DNA from: Parvularcula maris
Lineage (GTDB): Bacteria; Pseudomonadota; Alphaproteobacteria; Caulobacterales; Parvularculaceae
Assembly: GCF_024505085.1 (NCBI RefSeq)
Contig: NZ_JANIBC010000018.1
Location: 1 to 45,544, forward strand
Length of the DNA stretch: 45,544 nt
Direction: 5' to 3'
This document shows positions 29,816-45,399 of the stretch, piece after piece. Every line of letters begins with the position of its first letter. The first letter of the stretch is position 1. The notes beneath the pieces were generated by a model that saw only the letters and a program-made list of their open reading frames with translations, was not told the origin of the DNA and did no database searches. The translations under genes and the position numbers were made by a program.

Positions 29816-29969
29816 GATACTCTCAGGCACTCCATCCAGTATGAAAACGATGGTCTCCCCGCGAGATGTCGTGGTCCGCGACCGCTCCGCTTCTCGACAT
29901 AATACCTCCGTGTACCCCTGAGCACTCTGTGTCTCAGGGCCGATTTCGGGCCTTAGGAGGTGGTGGAGA

Positions 29970-31103
29970 GTGGTAACGAAGCTAAGCCAAGCGGTGGTGG
30001 ACCGCTGCATGGAAGAGGTGGGCGCGGGCAAACAGCTCTACGACACGCAGGTGAAGGGCTTCAGGGTCGTGGTGGGCAAGAGGTCCGCTTCCTACAAGCT
30101 CGTGACCGGCATCAACGACGGCACGGGCCGCGTGGTCTCGGTGATGATCGGCAGGACCGACGAGGTCAGCCTGAAGACCGCTAGGCAGCTCGCGACCGAG
30201 GCGAACGTCGCCGCACGCCGAGGCGAGGACCCCAGGCGCCTGAAGTCCACCGCACCCACCGTCCGCGAGGCCATGGAGCGCCACGTCGCGACCAAGAGCC
30301 TCAGGCCCACGACGGTCGACTGGTACCGCCACCAGACCGAGGTGCACCTCAAGAAGGTGGCCGACATGCCGATGGACAAGCTCGACCGGGAGACCTGCAG
30401 ATCGCTCCATGAACGGTTGACGAAGGATGTAAGCCCGACGACGGCGAACGGGGCGCTTCGGGTCCTGAAGGCCCTCTATAACGACGTGGCGAGGACCATG
30501 GACCTGCCGCCGAACCCTGTCAGCCTTGCCGTCAGGATGCACAAGGACAAGGAGCGGGACTGGGCCGTCGAGCCGAAGGACATGGCGGAAGCCTGGAAGG
30601 CCATCGACGGCATCGAGAACCCGGTCATGCGAGCGGCGTGGGCGACGATGATGCTGACGGGGCTGAGGGCGAACGACGTCAGGAACCTGCGCTGGGACGA
30701 CATCGACGAGAACGGCGTCGCCTTCATCAGGGAGCCCAAGGGCGGCGAGAGCAGGGCCTTCAGGCTGCCCCTGCCGAGGGCGGTGCTCGATGAGATCGAG
30801 GCCCTCAGGAGCTGGTCGCCATGGGTGTTCCCGGCGAAGTCGAGGAGCGGTCACATCGAGAGCTTCAAGCGGAAGGGCGGCTTCTGGCTCTCGCCCCACA
30901 TGTGCCGTCACACCTACAGGAGCTTCTGCGCCATGACGGGCGTGCCGCTCGAGGTCTGCATGGCCCTGATGAACCACAAGGGTCAGGGCGTGACGTTCCG
31001 CTACGTCACGAGGGCGGCGCTCGAGGAGACGATGCGAGTGCAGGCGGAGAGGGTGGCAGAGGCCATGCTTGCCTATCGTGAGATGGACAGCGCCTTGGTC
31101 TAA
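29970..31103 (+). CDS. int: Tyrosine site-specific recombinase (integrase)
   Basis: 377 residues. N-terminal SAM-like core-binding region about 90-185, catalytic domain 190-360. Catalytic residues seen: Arg in MLTGLRANDVR, Lys in EPKGGESRAF, HMCRHTYRS (His and Arg), and the nucleophile Tyr345 in FRYVTR. The start is GTG 29970 with AGGAGG 9 bases upstream. Lies 155 bases from attL and reads into the element. The leader has an inverted repeat CCCTGAG (29916-29922) / CTCAGGG (29933-29939). It should catalyse integration at tRNA-His. Confidence 0.95.
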   Translation: MVTKLSQAVVDRCMEEVGAGKQLYDTQVKGFRVVVGKRSASYKLVTGINDGTGRVVSVMIGRTDEVSLKTARQLATEANVAARRGEDPRRLKSTAPTVREAMERHVATKSLRPTTVDWYRHQTEVHLKKVADMPMDKLDRETCRSLHERLTKDVSPTTANGALRVLKALYNDVARTMDLPPNPVSLAVRMHKDKERDWAVEPKDMAEAWKAIDGIENPVMRAAWATMMLTGLRANDVRNLRWDDIDENGVAFIREPKGGESRAFRLPLPRAVLDEIEALRSWSPWVFPAKSRSGHIESFKRKGGFWLSPHMCRHTYRSFCAMTGVPLEVCMALMNHKGQGVTFRYVTRAALEETMRVQAERVAEAMLAYREMDSALV

Positions 31104-31183
31104 AACCGAACCAATATCATAACGGACCGGACTTCTAACCTAACCAGAAGAAACGACTTGCTCTAGCATCCCCAGGAGAAAAC

Positions 31184-31860
31184 CTAGTCCAGTTGAAAGG
31201 CTTTCAGAGACCTGGCAATCGCAGCGCTGAAGAAGATTGATGCCACAAAAGGTGCAAGAGCGTAGTAGAAGTCATGTCGCCAAGGCGAAAGCACTCTGTA
31301 TCTGAATTGTATATACTCCTCGACCCAATTGTTCAGTCTTCTGACTGCGTCATCAGCTGCGGAGGCCCGGCCCTTAAAAAAATCTCGCGCATCTGCCGGA
31401 TACTCCGGCCATATGATGGGACCATCAAGTTCGTCAGGAGTTGAAGGCAGTTGTTCAAAAATCGACCGAAGTTCCTTACCCCATTCGCATACTTGCCGAT
31501 CGTAACCGACAATGTCATCAAAATTATCAGGAGAATAGGGCGACCTCACTGCAGTCTCTGCAGCTACACAACTATGTTCCGCAATATTGATCGTTGACTC
31601 GAAGATATTGTGTTGACCTCTCCAATGACCGTCTAATATCTCCAGACGGATAAAGTCGAATCGGTCTTGAGCCGATAAAGTAGGCCTAGTACACTTGATG
31701 CACCAGCAAGCGTAATTACGAAATCAATTAACTTCAAGCGATTACTGTTTCGCCTTTTCGCTCCTAGTAAAAATACCAACGTTGCCAAGAAGGCCCCGCC
31801 GGTCACAGCAGCTGCGAAACTTAAGCTTCCAGTCCAGGCAGGAAGGACATCGACTAGCAC
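31184..31860 (-). pseudogene. Frameshifted membrane protein
   Basis: Two minus-strand frames belong together. 31860-31633 encodes 75 residues with two hydrophobic segments (about 10-32 and 44-62). The second part (31184-31549 and open upstream of it) continues in another frame from about 31670 with SAQDRFDFIRLEILDGHWRG and ends with a hydrophobic segment near the C-terminus. Adding one T in the CTTTATC run near 31678 would fuse them into about 225 residues (GLLLSAQDRF). No family recognised. It could be a decayed gene, a sequencing indel or, less likely, programmed frameshifting. Confidence 0.55.
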
Positions 31861-32099
31861 GAGATAGACACCCTACTCTGAACCTGCTGAACCCCGCTCT
31901 AAGTGAGCCCTTGCTTCATCGCGCATTCAGAAAAGGAACGCAACCAATTCCCTTAGCCAGAAACTATCGTACGACTGCCCGTCGCAATCACAGTGCTGCT
32001 CATCCATACTGAAGGTGCCAGAGAGTACCGACTGATGGTCTGCGCGCCCACTATAATTCAGTACACTGTTTTCCGTAGAGCGAAGTGTGGTGGAAGGTC

Positions 32100-32333
32100 A
32101 TGGAAGAGATCATCAAGAGGCTGGATCGGATCGAGCGGCTGCTCTCCGCCCCGATCGAGTACGTTGACACTGAGGGCGCGGCGACGATCATCGGCCTCTC
32201 GGTCAGGACGCTTGAGGGTCTGAGACTGAAGCGGCAGGGTCCGGCCTACTCGAAGGTCGGCAAGGTAGTCCGCTACGCCGTCCGCGACCTCCACAACTTC
32301 ATGGCCGAGGGCAGGACCGAAGCGCTACGGTGA
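32100..32333 (+). CDS. AlpA/MerR-like small HTH protein 1
   Basis: 77 residues. A helix (IIKRLDRIERLLSA) leads into a winged-helix excisionase-like domain: YVDTEGAATIIGLSVRTLEG, then LRLKRQGPAYSKVGKVVRY with the family's wing. Such proteins act as excisionases or as activators of integrase or replication genes in satellites. ATG 32100 follows GGAAGG; GTG 32085 is also in frame. Confidence 0.8.
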   Translation: MEEIIKRLDRIERLLSAPIEYVDTEGAATIIGLSVRTLEGLRLKRQGPAYSKVGKVVRYAVRDLHNFMAEGRTEALR

Positions 32334-32588
32334 CGGGGACACACTGAGTGCAAACCTTTGGAACTCCAGGCCCAGCCGAGAGTTAAATCGCTCCCGCGTC
32401 GATGGCTAAAACGGCCGCTACTAAGGGCAGCGCCTGTCTACGATCTGCTTAAACCGCATCCGTCGGCAGGTGTCACCTCTTAGAAACAACGTCCAACCGA
32501 TCTTCGTATGAGAGATAGAACGACTGAGGCGGGTGGCAAACCGAGCTGGCGAAGAAGCTGAACGCCTTTGCATGGTCCCATTGATCAG

Positions 32589-33062
32589 TTATGGCACCAT
32601 CTCACCGCCAGCGCTGAACGGCTTTCCCCAGCCAGCCTTGCTGTACTCGCTATCCACCCATCTGACAAACTTCGGGTGGATGCTGAAGACATCCCGTACC
32701 CTGGTCCAGCCGTCGGCGTAGATTTGCCGCCGTAGTCAGCGCCTCAGACCCTGTCTCCAGGTCTTCCAAATCACATCGTTGACCGAGCCCATCTCCCGAA
32801 GCTGGAACTCGTGGAAGATCACGTCGTAGTAGTACTCCATGTACTCCTGAAGCTTCGAAGGGTCGGGATACTCCTCGAACGGTCTGTCGACGTATGCGGA
32901 TAGGTCTTTTGGTCTGTGTCGGTCGATGACAGCGATCATCTTTTCAGAGTACCGAATGGAGGTCTCCGTCTGAATCTGCTGACGAACGCCCCTGATGCCG
33001 ACGTAGATACCTAGGCCGCTCGCCAGGATCGCGGCAGCGTTCAACCAGTCGGATATCTCCAT
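32589..33062 (-). pseudogene. Membrane-anchored protein interrupted by in-frame TGA
   Basis: From ATG 33062 (RBS AAGGGGG) the frame runs 108 residues with an N-terminal hydrophobic segment (AAAILASGLGIYVGI) to TGA at 32736-32738. The same frame then continues open for 48 more codons to TAA at 32589-32591, reading QIYADGWTRVRDVFSIHPKF and KAGWGKPFSAGGEMVP, a well-formed C-terminal domain. The whole unit is 474 bases, exactly 158 codons. It resembles DUF4760-like membrane-anchored proteins in layout. Nonsense mutation is the simplest reading; TGA readthrough is possible. Confidence 0.6.
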
Positions 33063-33220
33063 GGTGTCCCCCTTCTTCGGCGGGGAGAGTATCAAACCGA
33101 GCGACGACGGCAACACTGCCGCCGGGCTGCTCGCTAAGTTACAATGTAGCAAAGAACCTCAAACAATAGGTTCTTCCCGAAACCCGGACTGACACAATCG
33201 ATCCAGCTCACTTCGGAACG

Positions 33221-33252: not shown

Positions 33253-33300
33253 CAGTCGAAGAAGCAGACGTCGAACTCGCTAACCGAAAGGAACAAGTTC

Positions 33301-33531
33301 ATGCATCAGCGTAGCGCGCCGCAAGGCGCGATCGAACCATCGTTGCGCAACTTCCTGACGACGGAGGAAGCCGCAAAAGCAACCGGCCTGACCGTCAGTA
33401 CACTAGACAGCTACCGCTCGTTGAGGCGGAAGGGCCTGGACAAGGGCCCCGAGTTCGTCACACGGGGCCGGGCGGTCTTCTATCCGCTGGCCGCCGTCGA
33501 GGCGTTCCTCGCGACCTCGCTGGAGGTCTGA
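33301..33531 (+). CDS. AlpA/MerR-like small HTH protein 2
   Basis: 76 residues. LRNFLTTEEAAKATGL, then TVSTLDSYRSLRRKGLDKGP and FVTRGRAVFYPLAAVEAFL, is the excisionase-like winged helix with a conserved wing. AAAGGAAC precedes the ATG. It ends 3 bases before the primase-helicase gene, so it is probably a co-transcribed regulator of replication. Confidence 0.82.
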   Translation: MHQRSAPQGAIEPSLRNFLTTEEAAKATGLTVSTLDSYRSLRRKGLDKGPEFVTRGRAVFYPLAAVEAFLATSLEV

Positions 33532-33534
33532 CCG

Positions 33535-35715
33535 ATGGCTCACGACGACAAAGAGGCGCCGGAGGTAGAGCAGCTGAAGGCACACCACATCCACGGGCAC
33601 GACCTCTTCTCCCTCAAACCGCGCTCGAAAGAGCCACAGGGCCCGTGGCGGGAGCCGAAGGCAGGTTTCGATGCCGAGCGCCATGTGCAGAACGGCGGCA
33701 ACTTGGGCGTGAGGCTGACCGCAACCGATCTAGTCGTAGATATCGACCCCCGCAACTTCCCCGAGGGACGCGACATTCTAGCAGAGCTTCGCGAGAGGCT
33801 TGGAACCGATCTGCTCGATGCTGACGAGTTTCCCTTCGTCCGTACGGGAAGCGGCGGCTTCCATGTCTACTTGCGCAAACCCGCCGATCTGCGTGTAGCA
33901 GCCAACCTGAACCGCCACGGTTTACCTGGTATCGATCTGAAGACAGAGGGCGGTTATGTCGTAGCCGCCGGTTCGGTTCATCCCGATGGCGGCATCTACC
34001 GTTGGGCGGAAGACGAGCTCTGGATGCCGTCGGTCAAGGACGCTCCGGCAGCGCTGCTCGAGTTGGCTGTTAGAAACGAGCTGCCAGCTTCGATCAAAAC
34101 CGACTGTCCGCTCACGGTCGAGGAGCTGATCGACCGCCTGAACGGCCTGGACCCGTTGGAGTACGGTAAGGGGCGGTACGAGCAGTGGATCGAACTCCTC
34201 ATCTCGTTCCACGCTGCAGCAGGCGGCGACACGGATGCCATGCTTGCCTTCCAAGCGTGGTCGGAACGTGACCCCGAGTATGCCAATGGTGGGGCCGGAC
34301 CTTCGATCGAGGATAGGTGGCAGGGCCTGGAAGCTGACCGGAAAGGCGGTATCACTTGGCAGACTTTCGCGAGGCACGTTGCAGGCGTTGCCCCTTCGGC
34401 TGAGATCGCAGCAAGCGACTTCGAGGACGATCTTCCTGCGATAGCCGACGAGGCGAAGCCCAAAAAGCCGAAGAAGCCCAACGTCGAGGTTGACCACCCG
34501 GTCTTGCATGACTGGGTGTTCGTAGGGGATGCCAGCTCGTTCATCAGGCGGACGGACTTCAAGCAGTACAAGCAGGAGCAATGGAACGCGATGTTCGCGG
34601 ACCTCTGCCCCGATAGGAACCTTCCTAGCTTGGTCTACAAAAACAAGACGCCGGTCCGGAAGTTCGAGGAACTCGTCTACATCCCCGGCAGACCGCCGAC
34701 CTTCGACAACGCCTTCAATCTCTGGCGGCCCTCAGCCGCCGAGCCGAGGCCTAGCGATACATCGATCATCGAGCGCCATCTGGAGCTGCTGCTGCCTGAC
34801 GAGACGGAACGGGATTACTTCCTCGACTACATGCACTTCCTTGTCTGTCGGCCCGAGGTGAAGATGATGTTCGCCGCGCTTGTCGTGGGTAGCCAGGGAA
34901 CGGGTAAATCGGCCATCGGTTTGCTTCTGAAGCGGACCATCGGCAAGCGGAACGTCTCGCAGCCGAGCAACGGAGAGGTCACCGGCAACTGGACCGCTTG
35001 GCAGCAGGGGGCCTCGCTGGCGATCATCGAGGAGCTAATGACGCTTGGCAAGCTTGAGGTCGCAAACAAGCTGAAGCCGGTCATCACTGACGACACGTTG
35101 CGTATCGAGAACAAGAACATGCCGCTCTACTCGATCCCCAACCACCTGAACATTCTGGCGTTCACCAACCACGACGATGCCGTGCGGCTTGAGGACGGGG
35201 ACAGGCGGTGGATGGTGCTGTCGTCGCCAATGGAGCCTCAGGACGACGCCTATTACGATGACCTCTTCGGCTGGATCGGGAGCGAGGAGGCACCTGGGGC
35301 CTTCATCCACATGCTTCAGCAGAGAACGCCAAAGCTGAACCCGAAGGGCCGTGCGCCGATGACAGCAGGTAAGCTCACTATGCGGGAGGCTTCGAAATCC
35401 GACATCGAGCTGACTATCGAACAGTGGCTTGAGGAGCAGTCCGGCCCCTTCGCGCACGCACTGTTCAGGGTCGATGATGCCTGCGATGAGCTTCGCCGCA
35501 GCGCGGCGACCAAGGTTAGCCAGGCAAAGGTGAGAACGGCACTGAAGCGCTTCGGATGTGTGAAACACCCTCGCAACACGAACGCTGGGGGCGGACTGCC
35601 TACGTGTCAGCTCTGGTCATGCCGCGACCACACGAAGTGGGAGGCTGAAGGACCTGCAGGGAGGGCGAAGGCGTGGCGGAAGATCGAGGAAGCTAACGAT
35701 GCCTTTGACGGCTAA
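33535..35715 (+). CDS. Primase-polymerase / SF3 helicase fusion (P4 alpha-like)
   Basis: 726 residues. The N-terminal AEP primase-polymerase domain has VVDIDPRN (Asp69, Asp71), VRTGSGGFHVYL and GIDLKTEGGYVVAAGSVHPDG. A linker with Lys/Pro repeats (about 305-320) leads to a virulence-associated-E/DUF5906-type SF3 helicase: Walker A GSQGTGKS at 452-459, Walker B LAIIEELM, and LNILAFTNHDDAVRLEDGDR. This architecture initiates replication at iterons in satellite and plasmid-like elements. Directly followed by the iteron cluster. Confidence 0.92.
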   Translation: MAHDDKEAPEVEQLKAHHIHGHDLFSLKPRSKEPQGPWREPKAGFDAERHVQNGGNLGVRLTATDLVVDIDPRNFPEGRDILAELRERLGTDLLDADEFPFVRTGSGGFHVYLRKPADLRVAANLNRHGLPGIDLKTEGGYVVAAGSVHPDGGIYRWAEDELWMPSVKDAPAALLELAVRNELPASIKTDCPLTVEELIDRLNGLDPLEYGKGRYEQWIELLISFHAAAGGDTDAMLAFQAWSERDPEYANGGAGPSIEDRWQGLEADRKGGITWQTFARHVAGVAPSAEIAASDFEDDLPAIADEAKPKKPKKPNVEVDHPVLHDWVFVGDASSFIRRTDFKQYKQEQWNAMFADLCPDRNLPSLVYKNKTPVRKFEELVYIPGRPPTFDNAFNLWRPSAAEPRPSDTSIIERHLELLLPDETERDYFLDYMHFLVCRPEVKMMFAALVVGSQGTGKSAIGLLLKRTIGKRNVSQPSNGEVTGNWTAWQQGASLAIIEELMTLGKLEVANKLKPVITDDTLRIENKNMPLYSIPNHLNILAFTNHDDAVRLEDGDRRWMVLSSPMEPQDDAYYDDLFGWIGSEEAPGAFIHMLQQRTPKLNPKGRAPMTAGKLTMREASKSDIELTIEQWLEEQSGPFAHALFRVDDACDELRRSAATKVSQAKVRTALKRFGCVKHPRNTNAGGGLPTCQLWSCRDHTKWEAEGPAGRAKAWRKIEEANDAFDG

Positions 35716-35745
35716 CTGGCTTCCAGGCGCTGCCGGGTTCCATAC

Positions 35746-35779
35746 GCCGATAAGACAGGGTGGCGCCTGTCTTATCGGC
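35746..35779. repeat. Perfect 14-bp inverted repeat at the iteron edge
   Basis: GCCGATAAGACAGG (35746-35759) pairs perfectly with CCTGTCTTATCGGC (35766-35779) around a 6-base loop. Each arm includes an iteron. It starts 30 bases after the helicase stop codon and could be a terminator without T-run, or a cruciform within the origin. Confidence 0.75.
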
Positions 35780-36061
35780 ATGTGTGTCTTACAGCATGGT
35801 CTTACCCGAAAGCGTTGTTATCGTTACCTTCTTACTGCAATAAGACACCAAGACACCTACAATTATGGTTATGGCAGAAAAGGTACGATGAGCGGCGTTC
35901 GCCTCATCTCGAAAGCCGTGACCATGATTACGACATTTCTGTAGCTTCGAGCATAGCCGTCTTGTGTCTTAGCGGTCCCGGGCACGAAAAGACTATAGCG
36001 AACAGCAGCTTGACCTAAGACACCCCGTCCTGTCCGCACATCCTGATGGTGTCTTTGTCTT
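35746..36061. repeat. TAAGACAC iteron cluster, candidate replication origin
   Basis: About nine copies of a TAAGACAC(C)-type 9-mer in both orientations: 35751, 35766, 35783, 35796, 35841, 35849, 35963, 36016 and 36048 (left ends). Some are exact (TAAGACACC at 35841 and 36016; TGTGTCTTA at 35783 and 35963), others differ by one or two bases. AT-rich sequence (35858-35885) separates two groups. The position right after the primase-helicase gene matches the P4-type layout in which the alpha protein binds iterons to open the origin. Confidence 0.65.
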
Positions 36062-36334
36062 CCTGGGAGACCGGACGCCCACCGTACGCTTCGAGGGCGT
36101 CGAGTGCCATCAGTATGCGTTATGGTTGCTTCTGGCAGCCGCAGAGAGAACGGCAACGCGCTTTGGATTCTGCGGGCGCTGCGTCGCCCGCTGCGCTCTA
36201 CACGCGATCCGGCAGTGTCCGGTGACTGACGATCAGGTGGTCCCCGTGGAGGGACGGAAAGCCCTTCCGGTTCATGCGCTTGGAGGGGCCGAAAAGGCTC
36301 GGCCTTGCATGGGCCTGGGATAGGGGAGGTCAGC

Positions 36335-36904
36335 ATGGTGCAGAGGACGCCGGTCGAGCAGAGGGAGGCGAAGGAGCTGTTCCTCTCGCAGCTGGCCCTG
36401 ACGGGCTCGGTGGCGGAAGCGTGCAGGCGCTCGCAGCTCTCCCGCTCCGTCGTCTATCACTGGCGCACCACGGACAAGGCGGTGGCGGAGGCGTGGGAGC
36501 AGTCCATCGCGATCAGGCTCGATGCCATCCGAGACGAGGTGGTCGAGAAGGCCCTCGTTGCAACGGGGCGCATCGTGGAGGAGGCGCTGATCGGGGAGGA
36601 CGGCATGCCCGTATGGGACGAAGAGCTCGGCGACTTCGTGACGGTCAGGAAGCTCGTGGACTACGACCCCCAGATCCTGAAGAGCCTCGTCAACAAGACC
36701 ATGGTCTCGGCGGACGGCAGGAACGCGCCCTCGGTCACGGTCAACACGCAGCTAAACGTCCAGGCGCAGCAGCGTCCCGAGGTCATCAGGCGCGTCGAAA
36801 GACCGTCCTGGGCACCAAGGGCCGGCGAGGACGACGTCCTGGACGCCGAACCCGTACGCGCCGCCGATGCAGCCACGACCGAGCTGGACGAAGAGGATGA
36901 GTAA
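36335..36904 (+). CDS. Terminase small subunit-like HTH protein
   Basis: 189 residues. An N-terminal helix-turn-helix, FLSQLALTGSVAEACRRSQL then SRSVVYHWRTTDKAVAEAWE, is the DNA-recognition pattern of phage small terminases. The centre is helical, and the C-terminus is acidic and disordered (ending TTELDEEDE). GGGGAGG lies 6 bases before ATG 36335. Small terminases choose the pac/cos site; satellites encode their own to redirect packaging into helper capsids. No large terminase is nearby. A generic HTH regulator is the alternative. Confidence 0.7.
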   Translation: MVQRTPVEQREAKELFLSQLALTGSVAEACRRSQLSRSVVYHWRTTDKAVAEAWEQSIAIRLDAIRDEVVEKALVATGRIVEEALIGEDGMPVWDEELGDFVTVRKLVDYDPQILKSLVNKTMVSADGRNAPSVTVNTQLNVQAQQRPEVIRRVERPSWAPRAGEDDVLDAEPVRAADAATTELDEEDE

Positions 36905-37190
36905 GCCTTGCCCTGACTGCGTGACCGTAGAGTTCGTGTCGCCCTCGGGCGTCGTCTGCCGCCGCTTCGCGGACGGCGCCATGAACGTGCGCATCGCCGT
37001 AGGGCAGCTCTGCCACCCCGAGCATGGGCTTCTGAAGGAGATGGACAGCCTCGGCGATCCCCCGCCCTTCGAGAGCGAGGCGTTGCAGCGACAGGCGCTT
37101 GAGGTGGTCGCGAGGATGGGCGGTGTGGACAAGGCGACACGCCAGCGCCTCAGGCAGTGGGTCGAGTACGCCGGGCACCTGGAGGGCTGA
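36897..37190 (+). CDS. Small CxxC protein, hypothetical
   Basis: 97 residues, overlapping the terminase-like gene by 8 bp, hence co-translated. Begins SKPCPDCVTVEFVSPSG with a CPDC pair, and contains two more Cys (CRRF, LCHPEHG) that might bind zinc with His. A helical C-terminal half follows (ALQRQALEVVARMGG). No family recognised. Confidence 0.65.
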   Translation: MSKPCPDCVTVEFVSPSGVVCRRFADGAMNVRIAVGQLCHPEHGLLKEMDSLGDPPPFESEALQRQALEVVARMGGVDKATRQRLRQWVEYAGHLEG

Positions 37191-37382
37191 GCGGTAGCTC
37201 AGCACCAGTGCTACTGGATGTGGCCGAAGATCCTCCCGCTCAGGAATCACGGGGCAAGTTCGCTGCGAAACGGCTCTCTACTGGACGAAACTAGCCCCGT
37301 TGGTTCGGAACCTGGCTCGCATGCGGTTGACCCCCGTGCTTCTCCATTCTGTAATAGCAGCAGGCAGTGCGAAGGGCGTTCG

Positions 37383-37697
37383 ATGACAGATAATGTGTTG
37401 CGGGATGCATGGAGTACGGGGCTCATGACCTCTATCGTGTTCATCCCTTTTGGCTTCGTCGTCTATTGGGTGGTCTCGCTATTCCATCCAGACGTCCTGC
37501 CTCCCTCTGGAGAACAAGCAGTTTTGGTGGCCATTATCGCTGTCAGTTTAGCAACCTACTGTTCGAACCAAGCGCAGAGTGAAAGACGGCCTCGCGTTGC
37601 AGCTGCGGGCACCGTCTTTGGCGGTCTCGGTGCCCTCGGCGGCGTTGTCGCAACTATATTCTACCCCGAGATTCGTGCGGCTCTCGGCCTTAGTTGA
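37383..37697 (+). CDS. Small membrane protein, hypothetical
   Basis: 104 residues from ATG 37383 (AAGGGCG upstream); the longer frame from 37218 has no start signal. Three hydrophobic stretches are visible (about 16-33, 46-60 and 76-94). Codon use is more AT-rich than the neighbouring terminase-like gene. Function unknown. Confidence 0.6.
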   Translation: MTDNVLRDAWSTGLMTSIVFIPFGFVVYWVVSLFHPDVLPPSGEQAVLVAIIAVSLATYCSNQAQSERRPRVAAAGTVFGGLGALGGVVATIFYPEIRAALGLS

Positions 37698-38049: not shown

Positions 38050-39225
38050 CTAAAACGTCCGCACGCGGCGTGCCCGCGCTACCAGAGCAAAGAGTCCTGT
38101 GGCCATGATCACGGCGCCTCCGGGAAGCGGGACTTCACCGGCCGAGGGACTGAAGGCCGCGCCTTTAAAGCTCGCTATCTGGGGGTCTGTGTATCCCTCG
38201 AGCTGAAGGTCGTTCCCTATGGTGATCAGAAGGCTGAACAGTGTCAGACCGTCGAGCGACAGGCCTAGAGAAGAAAGGTCCGCATCGGTGATCCCCGACA
38301 GCCCCGAGAGGTCGATGTCCTGAAGGCCCAGCTCGGCCAGGAACGAAGGCATCATGGCCAGGTAGACACCAGCATCATGTTGGTTTTGAAGCCGGTCGCC
38401 CTCGAACATCAGGTGGGCGTCAACCAAGGGGAGGAGCGCCTCATACTCTTCATCGACGATGGCCCCCAACATCTTCTCATAGGTATTGATACTGTGAAAA
38501 CTGCTCGTTCCAAACCGGTCCATAGCTTCTTGGAAAGCGGTGCTGAACTCGTTTGCAAGAGGGTTGAATCCTTCCAACTCTACGAAAGATGTGTTGTAGG
38601 CAGGCACATTAAAATAGTCGAAGTCGGGTGGATCAAGCGCGCGCTTTTGATCACCCTGGGCATGCTGCTCAGTACGATTGGCGACATCCTTCACAAAAAA
38701 TGATATCAGTTTGTCTTTAATGTTATCTACCAAATCATCGAGTGTGTTTGCGAATCGACCGAAAACGTCAGCAGTCAACTGATAACCATGTTTCTCGCTA
38801 CAGCCGGATGAACCAGACAACATGCATTCGTTATAATCAAACCGTTTTGAGTTCGAACTCTGTGACAGCGTGACGGTGTCAATCAATACGGTTTCGCGGA
38901 AATCTACGGTAAGCCCAGGCGTAAAGCCATCCTCAATAGGAACGACGATCCGTACAAAGCTTTGGAGCTGGCCGACGAATGGCGATGGTTCGGAGAATGT
39001 CGTGCCCCGACTTGTTTCTTCGCAGGGTAGCGGATTGCCACCGATACGGCCCTTCGCGACTTGATCCGCCACGTAAGCTTCGGCTTCTTCGCACGAAGTG
39101 ATCCCGAAAGGATTTGCCGAAGCCTTGGCGACAGTGACAGGCTTAGCTTCTGCATCTGGTACAGCGGAAGCTAACGCCCCGACGGTCGCAACAGCTGCCC
39201 ATCCCCAATCGAACTTCACCACCAT
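38050..39225 (-). CDS. Secreted protein with VPLPA-CTERM-like sorting signal
   Basis: 391 residues. N-terminal signal peptide (WGWAAVATVGALASAVPDAEA). The C-terminus reads GEVPLPGGAVIMATGLFALV followed by ARARR: the VPLP motif, hydrophobic span and Arg cluster of PEP/VPLPA-CTERM proteins, which are processed by an exosortase during export. The middle is soluble with four Cys (CEEAEAY, PCEE, NECML, SGCSEK) and acidic; no known domain. GGGGAG abuts the ATG, so GTG at 39219 may be the real start. The exosortase must come from the host. Confidence 0.78.
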   Translation of the reverse strand: MVVKFDWGWAAVATVGALASAVPDAEAKPVTVAKASANPFGITSCEEAEAYVADQVAKGRIGGNPLPCEETSRGTTFSEPSPFVGQLQSFVRIVVPIEDGFTPGLTVDFRETVLIDTVTLSQSSNSKRFDYNECMLSGSSGCSEKHGYQLTADVFGRFANTLDDLVDNIKDKLISFFVKDVANRTEQHAQGDQKRALDPPDFDYFNVPAYNTSFVELEGFNPLANEFSTAFQEAMDRFGTSSFHSINTYEKMLGAIVDEEYEALLPLVDAHLMFEGDRLQNQHDAGVYLAMMPSFLAELGLQDIDLSGLSGITDADLSSLGLSLDGLTLFSLLITIGNDLQLEGYTDPQIASFKGAAFSPSAGEVPLPGGAVIMATGLFALVARARRVRTF

Positions 39226-39237
39226 CTCCCCGCTCGA

Positions 39238-39256: not shown

Positions 39257-39578
39257 ACTGGTGAACAATTTGCTTCAAGGGCAAACCGCAGTCTCATGCA
39301 GTTTTGGGTTGTCCCTCTGATCGCATAAGGGGTGTCCGCATCGGTCGCGTAGGATGTAGGCAAGATATTCACGCTTGTTCATGCCTGCCTGTCGCTTCGA
39401 CGATCAAACTTCTCGGCTCAACGGATCATGCAGCCTGCCGATCGCGTCCAGGCACCGTTCGGTCCGTCTGACTGCTTGTGGCGTAAGGTTCGCAATGACC
39501 TGTTCGCTGCTGCATGATCATCATTTGCCCCGCGAGCCCAAACGCTGGCGGACGCCCTGCCTCCCACCGCGTTATCAT

Positions 39579-39594
39579 TCGTGCGCGCACGAAC
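39579..39594. promoter_or_regulatory. 16-bp perfect palindrome upstream of coiled-coil operon
   Basis: TTCGTGCGCGCACGAA is fully self-complementary. It lies 26 bases before the TTG start at 39621, where a repressor would overlap the promoter or leader. No promoter hexamers were convincing. Confidence 0.4.
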
Positions 39595-39620
39595 GCGCGG
39601 GACGGGAAGGAGACGGAAGG

Positions 39621-40175
39621 TTGCTTGAACTGCTGACGAAGAGGAGGCTGGCGGCCGAGGAGCGGCTGGCCGAGCTGAAGGGAAGGATCGCCGCCGCCGT
39701 GGCGGACGGCGACGACAGGACGCTGAAGGCTTTGAGGGCCGAACGCCGCGAGCTGCGGGACGAGGCCGAGGACCTGGACCACGGCGCCGAGCTGCAACGG
39801 TCCCGCGATGCGGATGCTGCGGCAGAGGCCGAACGTACGAGGCAGGCAGAGGCGAGGGCGGTCGCGAAGGAGGGCGCCGAGGCGCTCACCGTCGTGGCGC
39901 GCAACCTAGACGCAGCGTTCGTAGAGCTCGAAGAGGCGTTCCTAGCCTTTCGCGAGCAGGGGATGGAGCTGGCGCAGGAGCTGCGCCATGCGGGGCTGCA
40001 CGATGGCAACAGGATCGTGAGGAGCCTGACGCCGAACCTCAGATGGGCGGCCTACCGCTCCGCTCCCCACTTCGCGCATGCGGCCGAGCTGCCGCGCGCT
40101 CCCGCCCACCGCCGCAGGACGATGGAGGAGCTGACGGGCACGATGCTCCCCGCCATTGAGGGGGAAGCGCAATGA
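39621..40175 (+). CDS. Coiled-coil protein 1, hypothetical
   Basis: 184 residues from TTG 39621, chosen because AAGGAG lies 8 bases upstream and coding character begins here. Residues 1-100 are continuous heptad-rich coiled coil (RRLAAEERLAELKGRIAAAV, RAERRELRDEAEDL). The second half is more globular and ends before a 4-bp overlap (ATGA) with the next gene. Length and position suggest a phage-derived scaffold or structural accessory protein, but that is a guess. Confidence 0.65.
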   Translation: MLELLTKRRLAAEERLAELKGRIAAAVADGDDRTLKALRAERRELRDEAEDLDHGAELQRSRDADAAAEAERTRQAEARAVAKEGAEALTVVARNLDAAFVELEEAFLAFREQGMELAQELRHAGLHDGNRIVRSLTPNLRWAAYRSAPHFAHAAELPRAPAHRRRTMEELTGTMLPAIEGEAQ

Positions 40176-40594
40176 ACGGTTTGCTGACCTGCGAGAACGC
40201 CATCGCCGGGCTCGAACGGGCTGAGCGGGTGCGGGAGGAGCTGGAGAGGCGGAAGGAGGAGACCAGCGCGAGGCTCGCCTCCATCGCCGCCACCCAGGAC
40301 GAGTGGGAACGGGTCGTGGAGCTCAGGCGGCAGATCGAGGCACTGGAGGCCGAGATGCCGAACGCCCTCGCGCTCCTACGTGGCGTGACCGAGCGGGTGG
40401 CGCTGCCGTCCGACCCCGAGCTCAGGAAGGCGTACCGCGCCGCAGAGCCGCGCACGGCGCTGCGCAAGCGTGCCGAGCGGCTGTTCGACGCCGCGATGAA
40501 AGTTGGCGATCAACAGCGCATGGCCAGCTCTTATGAACTCGTGCTCGAAGCGACAAACCTTCAGCAGGTCACGATGCGTAGGGCGACCACCTAG
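40172..40594 (+). CDS. Coiled-coil protein 2, hypothetical
   Basis: 140 residues; ATG overlaps the previous stop by 4 bp, so the two coiled-coil proteins are probably made together and may form a complex. Heptads at about 8-70 (GLERAERVREELERRKEET, VVELRRQIEALEAEM). The last 40 residues are globular and more AT-rich. Ends overlapping the convergent RHH gene by 4 bp. Confidence 0.62.
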   Translation: MNGLLTCENAIAGLERAERVREELERRKEETSARLASIAATQDEWERVVELRRQIEALEAEMPNALALLRGVTERVALPSDPELRKAYRAAEPRTALRKRAERLFDAAMKVGDQQRMASSYELVLEATNLQQVTMRRATT

Positions 40595-40932
40595 CCTCTC
40601 GCACGCGTGACCTTGGCTTCGGCATCGGTTTTCACAGGCTCGCCGTTCTTCCGCAGCCGAGTGCGATACCACGAGATGGAAGCCGGGGTGGGAGAGGAAC
40701 CGGGGCATTTTTCCCGGACACGTGCCATGGTTTCTTCGTTGGTGAGGCCTTCCCTGATCGCCTCTTCTGCAACGTCTTTCACCAATGGGCTAGACGCCTC
40801 CGATCCTTCGCCACCGAATGCGCCTGCCAGTGTCGATCGGATGAGATCGGGCACTGTCATCGCTCGCATATCTGCAACCTGATGCATCGCTGCAAAAGTT
40901 CCTTCCTCAATGGAGACACTGATTTTCTTCAA
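40591..40932 (-). CDS. Ribbon-helix-helix-like regulator, hypothetical
   Basis: 113 residues from TTG 40932 (MKKISVSIEEG after GGGAG, 7-base spacing). The N-terminus looks like an RHH DNA-binding unit: beta strand KKISVSIEE, then helix FAAMHQVADMRAM and TVPDLIRSTLAGA. The C-terminal half (TNEETMARVREKCPG then ASISWYRTRLRKNG) resembles a second DNA-contacting module. Divergent from the gene at 41024, which it may regulate. An upstream TTG at 40962 is in frame but has no RBS. Confidence 0.6.
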   Translation of the reverse strand: MKKISVSIEEGTFAAMHQVADMRAMTVPDLIRSTLAGAFGGEGSEASSPLVKDVAEEAIREGLTNEETMARVREKCPGSSPTPASISWYRTRLRKNGEPVKTDAEAKVTRARG

Positions 40933-41023
40933 GCTCACGCTCCCTTGAACGACCGCAGACAATCATTGATTGACTACCAGAATTTTGTCACTAGATTCTC
41001 CATACCAAACAAGGAGAACTCTT

Positions 41024-41674
41024 ATGGATAGCCATCAATCGATCAATCAACCAACCCCAATGGACTCCGAGCTCAAGACAAAACTAATTGAGTGTCTTGC
41101 TCTGATGTACGTCGATGGGTTCGACTCACTCCGCGCGACGGAGCAACGCCGGGCTTTAGGTGTGGAAGCTATTGGACGACCTGATCCAAGCCGCGTCGAA
41201 ATCGTTATCCACCGGCTGTCTGAGCTTGTGCACGGTAAGCTCTCCGACACTGATCAACTTCACATGCTAGCCTCACTTCAGAAAGCTCTAAAGGGCGTAG
41301 ATTTGAAAGAAGAGTGGCGTTCAGCAATCGTCAGTCTCGCGAGGTCCACCATCACCGCAGAACGCCGATCGCGGGTTTCACTTCTCGACCTTTCTGCGCT
41401 AGAGAAGCCAGAAGACTTTTGGGCTTATGCCGCCGGTATCACCAACTCGCGCGGCTATATCGCTACTGTTCCCCGCGAGCTAGACGGTCTACTTGACACC
41501 GATCCGAGCGCTGACCAGCCGTATACCGAATTTAGCCCGAATGTTACGTCCTTGCTCAAGCAGTTTGAAGGCCTCAGTCCGGACGACCCCGAAAGCCCAA
41601 TCAACGCTGACGATGAGGCTGATGAAGCCATGCGCCTTGGCGTCGTTCATTACCTGTTGGGACGGCTGAACTAG
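41024..41674 (+). CDS. Hypothetical cytoplasmic protein
   Basis: 216 residues; AAGGAG lies 7 bases before ATG 41024. Soluble and mostly helical, no membrane segment or signal. Notable parts: KTKLIECLALMYVDGFDSL, LSELVHGKLSDTDQ and an acidic tail NADDEADEAMRLG. No family recognised. Codon use is more AT-rich than the primase or coiled-coil genes and resembles the restriction genes downstream, hinting at a separate cargo block. Confidence 0.65.
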   Translation: MDSHQSINQPTPMDSELKTKLIECLALMYVDGFDSLRATEQRRALGVEAIGRPDPSRVEIVIHRLSELVHGKLSDTDQLHMLASLQKALKGVDLKEEWRSAIVSLARSTITAERRSRVSLLDLSALEKPEDFWAYAAGITNSRGYIATVPRELDGLLDTDPSADQPYTEFSPNVTSLLKQFEGLSPDDPESPINADDEADEAMRLGVVHYLLGRLN

Positions 41675-41690
41675 CGTTTTCAAGGTTAAC

Positions 41691-41921: not shown

Positions 41922-42306
41922 ATGAAGACCCTGAACGAAATGACCGGTCGCGAGTTGGTCGAGGAGCACAACAGGAGATGCGCGCCGGGGAGATGAGCTG
42001 ACCTACTGGAAGCGCCCGAAGGCGGAGCTTGTTGCGATCGTCGACGCCCTCCGTGAGCCGAAGGTTGCCGACACCGAGCCGGACGCCGCCGATGAGGCCG
42101 ACGGCCAAGACGGTCACGACACGGACGGATTCAGGAACCTGACCGAGATGGTCCGGCACCTGCTCGCCGAGACGGACATGACGTACCCGGCGATCGTCGA
42201 GGCGGTGCGGACCAGGTTCCCCGAGGCGCGGACGACCCGGCGTTCGGTGGCGTCGGTTGCGTGCGCAATGCGACGCTCGGGAAGCCAAATCGACCACCGC
42301 CGATAA
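41922..42306 (+). pseudogene. Frameshifted small gene (hidden coding region)
   Basis: ATG 41922 opens KTLNEMTGRELVEEHNR and stops at TGA 41994. In the next frame, without its own start, translation continues as ELTYWKRPKAELVAIVDAL, then NLTEMVRHLLAETDMTYPAI and VEAVRTRFPEARTTRRSVAS, to TAA 42304. Removing one G from the GGGG run at 41987-41990 joins them (APGDELTYWK). The joined product is about 127 residues with a C-terminal HTH-like helix set; phage-type small protein, family not recognised. Could be a true mutation or an assembly indel. Confidence 0.6.
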
Positions 42307-42420
42307 ACCAAGCCTATCAGCCACCAAGCGTCTGAAGTGGAGAGCTGAGCGGTGACCTGACGAGCTTCTTTATGCAGTGCTGGTCTGGCGGAATCACCAT
42401 CGAAATGACATCCCTTGGGG

Positions 42421-43506
42421 ATGTCTCAGTCTTCCACTCGCGCAGCATCTTTTCGAGTTCAACCCGACACGGGCAACAGGTTCGTGTCAAACATCCAGCG
42501 ATCCAACCTTACCATCTATGATGAGATACCTGTCGGAGACCCAGATCTTTGGATACCAACAGGTGATCTTGAGCAGTTGCTTTCTGATTCTTTGATTGGA
42601 GCAAGCCTTGCGGGACTGCCAATAAGAACAAGGTCGAAAGTCGCGAAGAGCTGGGTAGCAGAAGCAATGGGCTATTCTGCACCGCCCAGCTTTCAAAAAA
42701 CGCAGCCTCGTTTCCCTGGCCAGCTACTTGATACATATGTTCAAAAGGCTAATAACCTACAGATTTGGAACGAAGAGTTATCATCTGCTAGGCGCTATGT
42801 GCTGATCAGAGTAGATAGCGATGATGTAATCACACGAATAAAAGTTGTAAACGGTGACACATTGGCTGTGCTTGACACGACAGGCACACTCACTCAGAAG
42901 TATCAGGCGAGGTTTAGCGAGAGAGGCCAGGGTTGCCAGCTTTTCAGTTCCAGGGATACTGATTTGATTGAACCTCTATGCGATTCAGGTGCCGTGGGGT
43001 CAACTCAAAGGCGTCCAGAGGAACCGCCATCGGTCGAGGAAGGCATCCTACCAATTGCAGATCTCTTCGAGAAACTGCGCGCAATCGTCGGTAACTCATT
43101 CAAGGATTCTGGGGCCGTGTCGGAGAGAAGCCGCGGAGAAGCATTGCATCGACTCGTGTGTAAGGCCCTCGGGTATACACGTTATGGAGATAATGGGCAG
43201 TTCCCTGATGTTCGAAACCAGCTCTTGGAGGTAAAGCTTCAGACTTCCCCCACGATAGACTTGGGCCTCGTATTACCGAACTCAGATGAGTATCTCGATG
43301 TACCGCAGCTTGGTGGCCATCAGATCAGGCATTGTGATGTGCGGTATGCTGTTTTTGACGCGAAGACCGACGGGACAGCGGTGGCCGTGACTGGACTGGT
43401 ATTGATTACAGGACGGGACTTCTTCAACCGGTTTGTTCAATTCCAAGGTCGTAGACTGAACAAAAAACTCCAAATCCCGTTGCCGTCAAATTTCTTCAGC
43501 GCTTAG
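42421..43506 (+). CDS. Type II restriction endonuclease (PD-D/ExK)
   Basis: 361 residues from ATG 42421 (TTG 42415 is in frame). The C-terminal nuclease motif is FPDVRNQLLEVKL: Asp263, Glu270 and Lys272 form PD-x6-ExK, with helix Glu240 (SRGEALHRLV) upstream. The N-terminal half is probably target recognition. Paired with the convergent N6-adenine methyltransferase, their 3' ends overlapping by 21 bp. AT-rich codon use marks the pair as recently acquired. Specificity cannot be read. Confidence 0.8.
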   Translation: MSQSSTRAASFRVQPDTGNRFVSNIQRSNLTIYDEIPVGDPDLWIPTGDLEQLLSDSLIGASLAGLPIRTRSKVAKSWVAEAMGYSAPPSFQKTQPRFPGQLLDTYVQKANNLQIWNEELSSARRYVLIRVDSDDVITRIKVVNGDTLAVLDTTGTLTQKYQARFSERGQGCQLFSSRDTDLIEPLCDSGAVGSTQRRPEEPPSVEEGILPIADLFEKLRAIVGNSFKDSGAVSERSRGEALHRLVCKALGYTRYGDNGQFPDVRNQLLEVKLQTSPTIDLGLVLPNSDEYLDVPQLGGHQIRHCDVRYAVFDAKTDGTAVAVTGLVLITGRDFFNRFVQFQGRRLNKKLQIPLPSNFFSA

Positions 43507-45189
43507 GCCGAACGCTGACCAGACCAATAGATCAATCTGGTGATGGCGATGTTCGATATCGGCATCTGCCGGTTGAGCATGCGCATCCCTCGCATGCTTT
43601 ACAATCGCCCTGCTTACATTCGATGCGGGATCTGGAAGTGGGAATTTCTCAACGTACTGAGTGATAAAGCGTCGCCTGCCGGCGTATAGTTTGTTTGGAA
43701 AGGAAGCGTCATAGTATTTCTCGATGAACGATGAGTTGCCAACGGCAACTGCAAGCCATAGTAGATCTTCACTACTTTGATCATCTACTGCTATCCAGTA
43801 GCAATCACCATTTACGACAGCACCTTCTAGGTCTATCCAAAATGTTGGTTCGTCAGCGATATCTCGAAACACGAGCTTAGGTTGTGACCAGGCACTCGGG
43901 TCTTGCGGAACCCAGAGCTCATACCACTTCCGTCCTGCCTCTAGGACATACTTACGTTTCTCTAGAGCTTCCTGATTCTGTCGGAGATAGGTCTCTGATC
44001 GTGGGTATTGAGAAATATCAACTGCGAATCTCTGCCCATTAGTCGAGCCATGTGGATATAGAATTTCTCGCTTCTTCTTGGGAATGCCCTCTCGATATCT
44101 CCTTGCAGAATGGTGAGTGATGAGGGGGCGTAACAGCTCGGGTGATCCTAACTGTTCCCAGTCTGATCGTATAAAAATCTTATCAGCGCACGTCTTTACG
44201 CCCACGCGCACCTTTCCGATGTCGCCGAAGTAAGAATCCGTGTGGTTTCGGACGGTTTCGAGCCAGCTGTCTACGCGCGAACTTGAAAGACGCCATACCC
44301 CGTCAGATGATCTACCATTGTCGAGTTTCCCATGCTGCACCATGAAAACTCGATCATCACTTATTCGGACGTTGCCCTCTGATGAAAGAGCGTCAATTGG
44401 ATCGGATGCGACTTCGTCAGTTTCCCCGTCAGCTTCGTAGATGGAACTGAATACTATCTCCTCATCGTTCTGTGGACCGAGAAACAGAAGTGCAGGAAGG
44501 ACCGCAGCATCGAAAATTTTTGTATCGCCTAAGTCAATTACCTTCTTGAGCCTTCTTTGTTCGATGAGCGACTTTCGCATAACGGCACCGGTCTTGGTGG
44601 ACATGAAACGATTGGATACAATCAGACCAGCCGCACCTTTATTGTCCAAAATTCTGCCGATCGCGATTACGAACGCCTGATATAAATCAATTCGGCCAGA
44701 AAGGCCGAAGACCCGCGCAAGCTCCTTTGCCTGTTTCGTGCCTAGTATCTGAGTGCGAACATAGGGTGGATTCGCGACGATTAGATCGTACTTTGGTGGT
44801 TCTGCGGAGCTGAATAAATTACTACCTGCCAGTTTTTCGGCAATGTGCTCAAGAAAACTTCCATGCTGGACCTCAATTTTACATTCTGGGAATTGGTCTT
44901 CAACCCGAGCCCGAGCGATACTGAGAGACGATAGATCGGTGTCGAACGCAACGATTTCGCAATGCCGCCGCTCCTCAGGGGCCAGCGCGCGCAGGAGCGC
45001 TAACAGAAGCTCTCCATCGCCGACTGCTGGTTCCAAGATTCTAAGCCGGCTTCCCCGTTGGTTCCGCTCCTTTAGCGTTTGAGTTGCAAGGAAATTTGCC
45101 AGGAGCATCGGCGTGAACGTCGCGCCGGAAGACTTCTTCTCGTCAACCTCGCTGTAGCGATGAGAGAATTTGGGGAGAGGTGCGCTCAT
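43486..45189 (-). CDS. N6-adenine DNA methyltransferase (Eco57I-like)
   Basis: 567 residues. Motif I EPAVGDGE at 53-60 (AdoMet binding), IVAFDTDLSS (motif II), and catalytic ANPPYV with NPPY at 140-143. An Eco57I-like insert and a C-terminal TaqI/target-recognition part (FPLPDP region) follow. Methylates adenine in the site cut by the convergent endonuclease, protecting the host and holding the element. ATG 45189 starts MSAPLPKFSH; upstream frame to 45264 has no RBS. The gene ends the element, 211 bases before attR. Confidence 0.88.
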   Translation of the reverse strand: MSAPLPKFSHRYSEVDEKKSSGATFTPMLLANFLATQTLKERNQRGSRLRILEPAVGDGELLLALLRALAPEERRHCEIVAFDTDLSSLSIARARVEDQFPECKIEVQHGSFLEHIAEKLAGSNLFSSAEPPKYDLIVANPPYVRTQILGTKQAKELARVFGLSGRIDLYQAFVIAIGRILDNKGAAGLIVSNRFMSTKTGAVMRKSLIEQRRLKKVIDLGDTKIFDAAVLPALLFLGPQNDEEIVFSSIYEADGETDEVASDPIDALSSEGNVRISDDRVFMVQHGKLDNGRSSDGVWRLSSSRVDSWLETVRNHTDSYFGDIGKVRVGVKTCADKIFIRSDWEQLGSPELLRPLITHHSARRYREGIPKKKREILYPHGSTNGQRFAVDISQYPRSETYLRQNQEALEKRKYVLEAGRKWYELWVPQDPSAWSQPKLVFRDIADEPTFWIDLEGAVVNGDCYWIAVDDQSSEDLLWLAVAVGNSSFIEKYYDASFPNKLYAGRRRFITQYVEKFPLPDPASNVSRAIVKHARDAHAQPADADIEHRHHQIDLLVWSAFGLSAEEI

Positions 45190-45399
45190 CAGGGTTCTCA
45201 CGTGGAGTACGAATCGGAAAGGATGAGAGATGTTGCGGCGGACCGGCGGGAATGTACACGCCATAGACTCCCTCGGTTTTCCTCAGCCGGGCATTTCATC
45301 CAAGACGTCAGACGGTCAAAGGCTTAGTTCGAGCTTCGTTTCGCTCGCAACGCCTTCAAAGTTTTGATCTGGTTGTGCTTTTTGTCCCGAGGTCCCGAC

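What the first reader, a model, noticed from the sequence alone, without database searches (positions are those of the whole stretch)
29816..45399. Possible phage satellite (PICI/P4-like) in an alphaproteobacterium
Integrase, AlpA-like regulators, primase-polymerase/SF3 helicase with iterons and a small-terminase-like protein, but no capsid, portal, tail or large terminase. That combination is the hallmark of satellites that borrow a helper's particles. Such elements are much better known in Firmicutes and Gammaproteobacteria than in this group, so this may be an undescribed satellite family.
Basis: partly seen in the sequence, partly recalled or inferred. Interest (0 to 1): 0.75.

Follow-up and report, generated by a model that had tools for sequence, protein, structure and literature searches.

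The report
Undescribed alphaproteobacterial phage-satellite family
A 15.6-kb stretch inserted in a tRNA gene looks like a parasite of bacterial viruses: it carries genes to copy itself and to mark its DNA for packaging but none for a virus shell, and similar elements, many with predicted anti-virus genes, turn up in bacteria where such parasites were hardly known.

Summary
A 15,635-bp element lies between exact 51-bp repeats, the left one in the 3' end of tRNA-His. It carries an integrase, two AlpA-like regulators, a Prim-Pol/SF3-type primase, an iteron cluster after the primase, a small terminase (TerS), a gene overlapping TerS, and a BseCI-like restriction pair. No large terminase, portal, capsid or tail gene was found. 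I found 13 further bacterial elements and 12 viral-database contigs with integrase, primase and TerS. Nine, all at tRNA genes, have att repeats 10.4-15.6 kb apart. By profile search of 13 host genomes, one element holds a large terminase and none a portal or HK97 capsid. Satellites and phages separate on a primase tree. A helical protein ('cl6') occurs in most relatives and in none of 50,697 phage records; the window's TerS subgroup lacks it. The layout is PICI-like, yet against one E. coli PICI only the integrase matched, weakly. Best reading: a satellite that replicates itself and uses its own TerS to steer a siphophage-type helper's packaging motor. Helper and packaging are inferred, not shown. 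Novelty: new variant of a known kind.

The parts
29733..29809 (+). tRNA-His (GTG), integration target
   Evidence: ARAGORN; intact in the 8 same-genus genomes whose stretch was fetched, without element DNA beside it
29765..29815 (+). attL, 51 bp
   Evidence: exact repeat of 45400-45450
29970..31103 (+). tyrosine integrase
   Evidence: Pfam 1e-11, phrog_1 1.1e-47; 51% to L046, 44% to L018
31184..31549 (-). unknown ORF, possible cargo
   Evidence: no family match
31633..31860 (-). unknown small ORF, possible membrane protein
   Evidence: weak matches only
32085..32333 (+). AlpA-like HTH regulator 1
   Evidence: HTH_17 1.6e-5, under cut-off; 42-46% in L018, L045, L046
32736..33152 (-). unknown ORF, possible cargo
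   Evidence: no significant family match
33301..33531 (+). AlpA-like HTH regulator 2
   Evidence: phrog_66 1.3e-6; 39-48% in L018, L041, L045, L046
33535..35715 (+). Prim-Pol/PriCT-2/DUF5906 (SF3-type) primase-helicase
   Evidence: Pfam 2e-20 and 1e-17, phrog_1156 2.6e-65
35741..36062 (.). iteron cluster (TAAGACA in both orientations), probable replication origin
   Evidence: position as in PICI origins (PMC6092414 section 6)
36335..36904 (+). small terminase TerS
   Evidence: phrog_4044 2.6e-12; model HTH + long helix + beta hairpin; top PDB hits Sf6 TerS, not significant alone
36867..37190 (+). small protein overlapping the end of TerS
   Evidence: 37% over 73 aa to the gene after TerS in L041, E 8e-15 for that pair
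37377..37697 (+). small ORF that reads as a membrane protein (start by inspection)
   Evidence: read directly; the longer ORF 37218-37697 gave weak matches only
38050..39225 (-). exported, PEP-CTERM-like protein, cargo
   Evidence: N-terminal signal and VPLPGG C-terminus read directly; no family match worth counting
39375..40175 (+). ORF that looks coiled-coil, function unknown
   Evidence: no significant match
40172..40594 (+). ORF that looks coiled-coil, function unknown
   Evidence: weak matches only
40591..40962 (-). ribbon-helix-helix-like protein shared with relatives
   Evidence: 29-35% over about 110 aa in L018, L038, L046, L078; phrog_17205 3e-15
40970..41674 (+). unknown ORF
   Evidence: no match
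42415..43506 (+). type II restriction endonuclease
   Evidence: PADLOC REase_II 3.3e-138
43486..45264 (-). type II adenine methyltransferase, M.BseCI-like
   Evidence: PADLOC MTase_II 4.7e-178; BseCI structure 1.3e-122
45400..45450 (+). attR, 51 bp

Best explanation
The element is an integrated phage satellite. Shown by sequence: att repeats of site-specific integration at tRNA-His, and genes for its own integrase, replication protein, a probable origin and a small terminase, with no particle genes found. Inferred: when a helper phage grows in the cell, AlpA-like regulators switch on excision and replication; the primase-helicase starts replication at the iterons just downstream; the satellite's TerS binds a satellite packaging site and docks on the helper's large terminase, so that helper heads are filled with satellite DNA; the particle injects it into a new cell, where it integrates again. 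The restriction-modification pair at the distal end protects the host from other phages and pays for carriage. The helper is probably a siphophage with a primase-TerS-TerL module like that of Pamexvirus or of the phage-like contig L019.
For: Exact att repeats in a tRNA gene. The same int-primase-TerS set, mostly with AlpA-like genes, in relatives. Nine att-bounded members with repeats 10.4-15.6 kb apart. TerS called as terminase small subunit by PHROGs in 9 of 9 elements scanned. TerL inside 1 of 13 elements, portal and HK97 capsid in 0 of 13. Satellites and phages separate on the primase tree: 3 changes against 11.4 when shuffled, 0 of 500 as low; the window's smallest starred set is 6 rows, all satellites. 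TerS dN/dS 0.10-0.54 in the 20 pairs of lowest dS, all among viral-contig members. Iterons after the primase in 8 of 14 elements, before it in 0 of 14. Predicted restriction or defence genes in 10 of 14. TerS and primase not found in the 9 other same-genus genomes searched.
Against: No helper was identified: the host's only portal and capsid hits are its GTA-like cluster. No particle, attP junction or packaged DNA was seen; the 8 whole viral contigs among 15 loci tested have no terminal repeat, 5 of them labelled satellites. No capsid-size factor is recognised, and the window lacks the cl6 protein of most relatives. TerS matches in structure searches are not significant on their own. Selection on TerS was measured only outside the window's subgroup. 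An empty site with both flanks was not shown, because the right flank lies elsewhere in same-genus genomes. Iterons are rare in the viral-contig satellites (1 of 11). Large-terminase families other than phrog_2 and PF03354 were not sought in the own genome.
Confidence: 0.81

Rival explanations
1. A decayed prophage: a phage with a primase-TerS-TerL-portal module lost its particle genes by deletion and what remains is a fossil.
For: The primase and TerS are shared with true phages: Pamexvirus has primase, then TerS and TerL, and L019 has primase-TerS-TerL-portal.
Against: The same compact set recurs in 14 bacterial elements and 12 viral contigs, with an open TerS frame in all 12 of the latter. 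Att repeats stay 10.4-15.6 kb apart, satellites group apart from phages on the primase tree, TerS is under purifying selection in the viral-contig members, and cl6 was not found in 50,697 phage records.
Confidence: 0.11
2. An integrative island that does not travel in particles: it moves by its integrase alone, by conjugation or by chance transduction, and the TerS-like protein is a DNA-binding regulator.
For: TerS proteins are HTH proteins and the structural match is weak. The Pleomorphomonas plasmid pSM30-2 has a related primase and an integrase, and its only TerS-like score is 0.0015. Loci L020-L025 have a related primase without a TerS match.
Against: Three different TerS groups occupy the place after the primase, as expected if the function is packaging, and the window's TerS group sits near TerL in 29 of 55 viral loci. 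One member also carries a TerL of 451 aa. No relaxase was matched in the element.
Confidence: 0.07

Closest known systems
Gram-negative phage-inducible chromosomal islands (PICIs, e.g. EcCICFT073)
   Same: int at the left end, AlpA-type regulator, primase/Rep, origin with iterons just 3' of it, TerS in some, accessory genes (PMC6092414 passages and section 6).
   Different: Only the integrase gives a BLASTP match to the element I take to be EcCICFT073, E 6e-4; primase, TerS and cl6 profiles find nothing in the 18 of its proteins compared. EcCICFT073 lacks TerS (paper), and the record annotates a major capsid and a head decoration protein there.
P4-like satellites
   Same: integrase in a tRNA (recalled), AlpA/Vis-type regulator, P4-family primase C-terminal domain (TIGR01613 9.5e-7, under its cut-off).
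   Different: P4 uses the helper's terminase on cos sites and the scaffold Sid (PMC10690885 passage); here a TerS is encoded and no P4 capsid or packaging gene was matched.
Capsid-forming PICIs
   Same: own packaging genes; G085 has TerS and TerL.
   Different: cf-PICIs encode capsid, protease, portal and connectors (PMC10690885 passage); portal and HK97 capsid were not found in the elements of 13 genomes.
Pamexvirus siphophages (PaMx28 and kin)
   Same: primase gene followed by terS and terL; TerS 35% over 99 aa.
   Different: Records of 55-59 kb; PaMx28 has terL and portal; the window element has neither and carries an integrase.

Membership tests
Phage satellite (general) | integrated element with its own integration and replication genes and no complete particle set | tested here: met
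Phage satellite (general) | DNA packaged and transferred in helper particles | not testable with these tools
   needs induction and transfer experiments
Gram-negative PICI | int, AlpA or MerR regulator, primase/Rep in that order | tested here: met
   order given in PMC6092414
Gram-negative PICI | origin with iterons immediately 3' of rep, two sets round an AT-rich stretch | tested here: inconclusive
   iterons met; the AT-rich part is modest, 53% AT between the sets against 45-47% in them; origin function not tested
Gram-negative PICI | unidirectional rightward transcription | tested here: inconclusive
   int, alpA, primase and terS are all on +, but several other ORFs are on -
Gram-negative PICI | PICI-specific genes homologous to a reference PICI | tested here: not met
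   17 window proteins against 18 proteins of one E. coli element: only the integrase, E 6e-4; one reference only, taken to be EcCICFT073 from its place and gene order
Gram-negative PICI | interference with helper phage | not testable with these tools
   no helper known
P4-like | Sid/Psu/Delta-type genes and use of helper packaging without an own TerS | tested here: not met
   no such match in Pfam/PHROGs scans; TerS present; part of the definition is recalled
Capsid-forming PICI | own capsid, portal and both terminase subunits | tested here: not met
Family described here (int + primase + TerS, compact, att-bounded) | all three genes within one element of 10-16 kb, no portal or capsid | tested here: met
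Family described here | cl6 helical protein | tested here: not met
   absent in window, L018, L032, L041, L046; present in the other 9 of 14, so it marks a subgroup

The most novel reading that the evidence does not exclude
A widespread family of phage satellites, so far undescribed, spans Alphaproteobacteria and probably reaches Gammaproteobacteria and a Binatia MAG. Its members exchange at least three TerS types to match different helpers, most carry a satellite-only helical protein (cl6) that takes over the helper, and some (G085; perhaps an IMG/VR contig) even bring their own large terminase and thus a whole packaging motor, borrowing only the shell and tail.
Probability: 0.53. Interest if true: 0.76.

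Novelty: new variant of a known kind. Interest (0 to 1): 0.63.

Why it matters
Phage satellites move defence and virulence genes and shape phage-host conflict, but the families named in the review passages seen here come from a limited set of bacteria. A family with clear att ends, a shared gene set and predicted defence cargo in Sphingomonadales, Rhodobacterales, Hyphomicrobiales and others would add a large bacterial class to satellite biology, explain part of how restriction systems spread there, and give a concrete list of proteins (TerS variants, the TerS-overlapping gene, cl6) to test as new hijacking factors. Carriers named as strains, such as Martelella limonii NBRC 109441 and Sandaracinobacteroides sayramensis RS1-74, make it testable.

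Tried and rejected
Single-protein scans of the viral and genome collections found nothing; a two-row primase alignment did. PF03354 TerL in the own genome gave nothing; phrog_2 found only the GTA-like TerL and a weak hit inside a 256-aa ORF that I read as PhoH. The Pleomorphomonas plasmid was considered as a free form of the satellite and dropped: its candidate ORF scores first as an excisionase (phrog_66 8e-6) and as TerS only at 0.0015. Roseobacter phage RDJL3 (primase 30%) shows no annotated TerS near the primase. A two-flank empty site was sought and not obtained. The cl6 model (pLDDT 88.5) has no significant fold match in viral or PDB libraries, and of its 18 aligned members only one or two each match any of 6 PHROG families at E up to 0.1, best 1.1e-4 to an Rz-like spanin; no mechanism is claimed for it. 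Its one hit among 72,556 plasmid records is a Rhizobium plasmid. ATCGAT avoidance in the element was checked as a sign of the restriction system and is not convincing: 4 seen, 2.6 or 7.4 expected by two models. The promoter and terminator scan was not informative. TerS of L046 matched no phage record.

Weak points in the counts. One search drew random sequences by a first-order chain and took the best of the 15 commonest 8-mers; L043 was entered there on the wrong strand, but neither side was significant. In one search, 3 of 25 named satellites (L043, L018, L118) and the phage L019 are not in the tree, and 21 of 57 rows were left unlabelled; it is a quick tree with long branches, the window's among them. 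The phage and satellite labels rest on genes within the fetched flank: several viral contigs (L077, L078, L080, L110) are longer than what was fetched. ORFs were called by a simple longest-ORF script, not by a gene finder. Of the 17 loci, six were left out of the 14: L036, L042, L044, L045, L047 (no integrase or TerS match) and L040 (primase, TerS and cl6, no integrase match). L020-L025 share a related primase but no TerS or integrase matched. The record names are as deposited; MAG contigs such as the Binatia one may be misbinned. Text searches listed 20 of 29 and 20 of 34 papers.
Full report
Check of the observation. The window holds a complete integrated element. Exact 51-bp direct repeats lie at 29765-29815 and 45400-45450, 15,635 bp apart. 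The left copy covers the 3' end of tRNA-His 29733-29809, so the target gene is left intact. GC is 0.576 inside and 0.652 in 1-29764. The tRNA-His gene is intact in the 8 same-genus genomes whose downstream stretch (2.4-4.7 kb) was fetched, and none shows element DNA beside it. The TerS was found in 1 of 61 genomes searched, the window's own; the primase was not found in the other 9 same-genus genomes.

Gene content. From left to right: tyrosine integrase (Pfam 1e-11, phrog_1 1.1e-47), AlpA-like regulators at 32085-32333 and 33301-33531, a Prim-Pol/PriCT-2/DUF5906 primase at 33535-35715, TerS at 36335-36904 (phrog_4044, terminase small subunit, 2.6e-12), and at the right end a type II restriction pair (PADLOC REase_II 3.3e-138; MTase_II 4.7e-178). 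The methyltransferase matches the structure of M.BseCI at 1.3e-122; BseCI reads ATCGAT, as I recall. Eighteen chosen element ORFs were scanned, 17 with Pfam and 17 with PHROGs, and none matched a capsid, portal, tail or large terminase. A 107-aa gene that overlaps the end of terS is 37% identical over 73 aa to the gene in the same place in a Paracoccaceae element, L041.

Is it TerS? The PHROG match is clear and the Pfam Sf6_terminase match is under its cut-off. A viral scan with this TerS group fetched 55 loci; 29 of them also show a large terminase by my few references, often several hundred bases downstream. The AlphaFold2 model (pLDDT 74.6, residues 135-181 of low confidence) has an HTH, a long helix, a beta hairpin and a helix. 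Its best PDB matches are Sf6 small terminases, and other small terminases stand in the list beside unrelated regulators, but no match is significant alone (E 0.39 at best). A profile search of PDB sequences puts Sf6 TerS first at E 0.025. Together these make TerS likely.

Iterons. The stretch just after the primase holds 9 copies of AAGACA/TGTCTT in 640 bp against 6 in the rest of the element. For 14 elements I compared the most repeated 8-mer in 700 bp after and before the primase with 200 random sequences: 8 of 14 were at or under 0.005 after it (window, G085, L034, L038, L039, L041, L046, L018) and 0 of 14 before it. The repeated word differs from element to element. Among satellites in viral contigs it was 1 of 11 at 0.01 or less, and among related phages 1 of 12 after the primase (two phages had such a word before it). 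The published Gram-negative PICI origin lies in the same place (PMC6092414 section 6, read).

The family. The closest primase in 299 genomes of the order was in G085, 42% identical. G085 carries a 14,399-bp element between 49-bp repeats at tRNA-Arg with int, primase, TerS (phrog_309 8.8e-15), a large terminase of 451 aa (phrog_2 9.6e-30; the profile match runs a little past its stop, so its end may be short), unknown genes, a DNA methyltransferase and genes that I read as McrBC-like. A genome scan with the two-row primase alignment gave 17 loci. Of these, 11 have int, primase and TerS: Binatia MAG, Hyphomicrobiales, Sandaracinobacteroides, Martelella, Beijerinckiaceae, Sphingorhabdus, Erythrobacteraceae, Paracoccaceae, Sphingomonadales, Roseobacter and Parvibaculum records. 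With the window, G085 and G261 (L018) that makes 14. Exact att repeats were found in 6 of 14, 13.3-15.6 kb apart, each at a tRNA gene; in L037 the repeat is only 20 bp. Some other records are cut by contig ends. A viral-contig scan gave 73 relatives; 12 distinct contigs have int, primase and TerS, and three of the 15 viral loci tested have att-like repeats at a tRNA-Thr, 10.4, 11.6 and about 15.3 kb apart. Gammaproteobacterial reach rests on L040 (Xanthomonas arboricola), which has primase, TerS and cl6 but no integrase match.

No particle genes. In 13 genomes that hold such elements, the TerL hits (phrog_2) lie outside the element in all but G085, and portal (PF04860) and HK97 capsid (PF05065) hits lie outside it in all. 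Contig numbers do not name the records, so placement was read from contig lengths and positions; where a position alone could have fallen in a fetched locus (L033, L037, L039, L048) I checked the locus: seven of those eight places have stops in all three frames, the eighth (L048) lies before the integrase and so outside the element, and TerL, portal and capsid proteins of the window's own GTA-like cluster find nothing in any element locus. L032 was checked only with reference proteins. In the window's own genome the only portal and capsid hits are in a GTA-like cluster near C1:505-517 kb, so no resident helper was seen with these families.

Old lineage or recent decay? On a 57-row primase tree, 22 satellites and 14 phages need 3 changes of label against 11.4 in shuffles, 0 of 500 as low; the smallest starred set that holds the window is 6 rows, all satellites. 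In the 20 pairs of lowest dS, all among viral-contig members, TerS dN/dS is 0.10-0.54 and cl6 0.29-0.53. A fossil would not be expected to keep TerS under constraint. This could not be measured for the window, which has no close relative here.

Subgroups. The 14 elements carry three TerS groups. Every element with the window's group (window, L018, L032, L041, L046) lacks cl6, and all 9 others have it; 11 of the 12 viral-contig satellites have it too, the twelfth (L080) being cut just after TerS. cl6 has a core of about 240 aa, modelled as all helices at pLDDT 88.5, with no significant fold match and no match in 50,697 phage records from either of two queries. A few single members match PHROG families weakly, best 1.1e-4. 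It is a candidate takeover factor of the other subgroups; what takes its place here is unknown. Predicted restriction or defence genes were seen in 10 of 14: the window, seven with a methyltransferase of one cluster (searches confirm three), L018 and L035.

How it most likely works. Shown: att repeats of integration, gene set, a probable origin, no particle genes found, selection on TerS in relatives. Inferred: induction by a helper through the AlpA-like proteins, replication from the iterons, redirection of the helper's packaging by TerS, and protection of the host by the restriction pair. The candidate helper type is a siphophage with a primase-TerS-TerL module, as in Pamexvirus or in the phage-like contig L019 of the same order.

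Against the known. It works like a PICI, but by gene content it is not shown to be one: of 17 window proteins compared with 18 of the element that I take to be EcCICFT073, only the integrase matched. It is not P4-like or capsid-forming by the tests above. Ten searches of the text library (two listings capped at 20) listed no paper on such elements in Alphaproteobacteria. I saw passages of PMC6092414, PMC11389934, PMC10690885, PMC8682789, PMC11131426 and PMC12946183, one section of the first, and otherwise listings only. The library lacks most subscription papers, so an unseen description is possible.

Changes on checking.

Noticed in passing
window 45544, continuing in L026 (G000:C18:45545): The contig has an N at 45545 with the same 94 bp on both sides, as if an assembler left an overlap unresolved; the right flank beyond it is slightly less sure.
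   Followed up: partly
L026:5175-6599: A gene that reads as another tyrosine recombinase stands next to tRNA-Gly about 5 kb beyond attR, perhaps the start of a second element.
   Followed up: no
G000:C1:505182-517243: A GTA-like cluster (TerL, portal, capsid, a 1253-aa protein) supports an alphaproteobacterial host; the GTA label is my reading.
   Followed up: partly
L085:8674-11753: This viral contig holds a cl6 gene on each side of a tRNA-Thr, with a large terminase on one side: perhaps two satellites at one site, one of them with its own TerL.
   Followed up: partly
window 38050-39225: A protein with an export signal and a PEP-CTERM-like end, unusual as satellite cargo.
   Followed up: no
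L015 (Pleomorphomonas plasmid pSM30-2): A 21-kb plasmid with a related primase split in two, an integrase and a gene annotated as a type I restriction subunit, but no clear TerS.
   Followed up: partly
[not shown]
   Followed up: no
L035:17117-19895: The Martelella element carries a CARF6-type protein (PADLOC 2.7e-80) next to a 607-aa protein that reads as an ATPase; possibly a little-studied defence pair.
   Followed up: no
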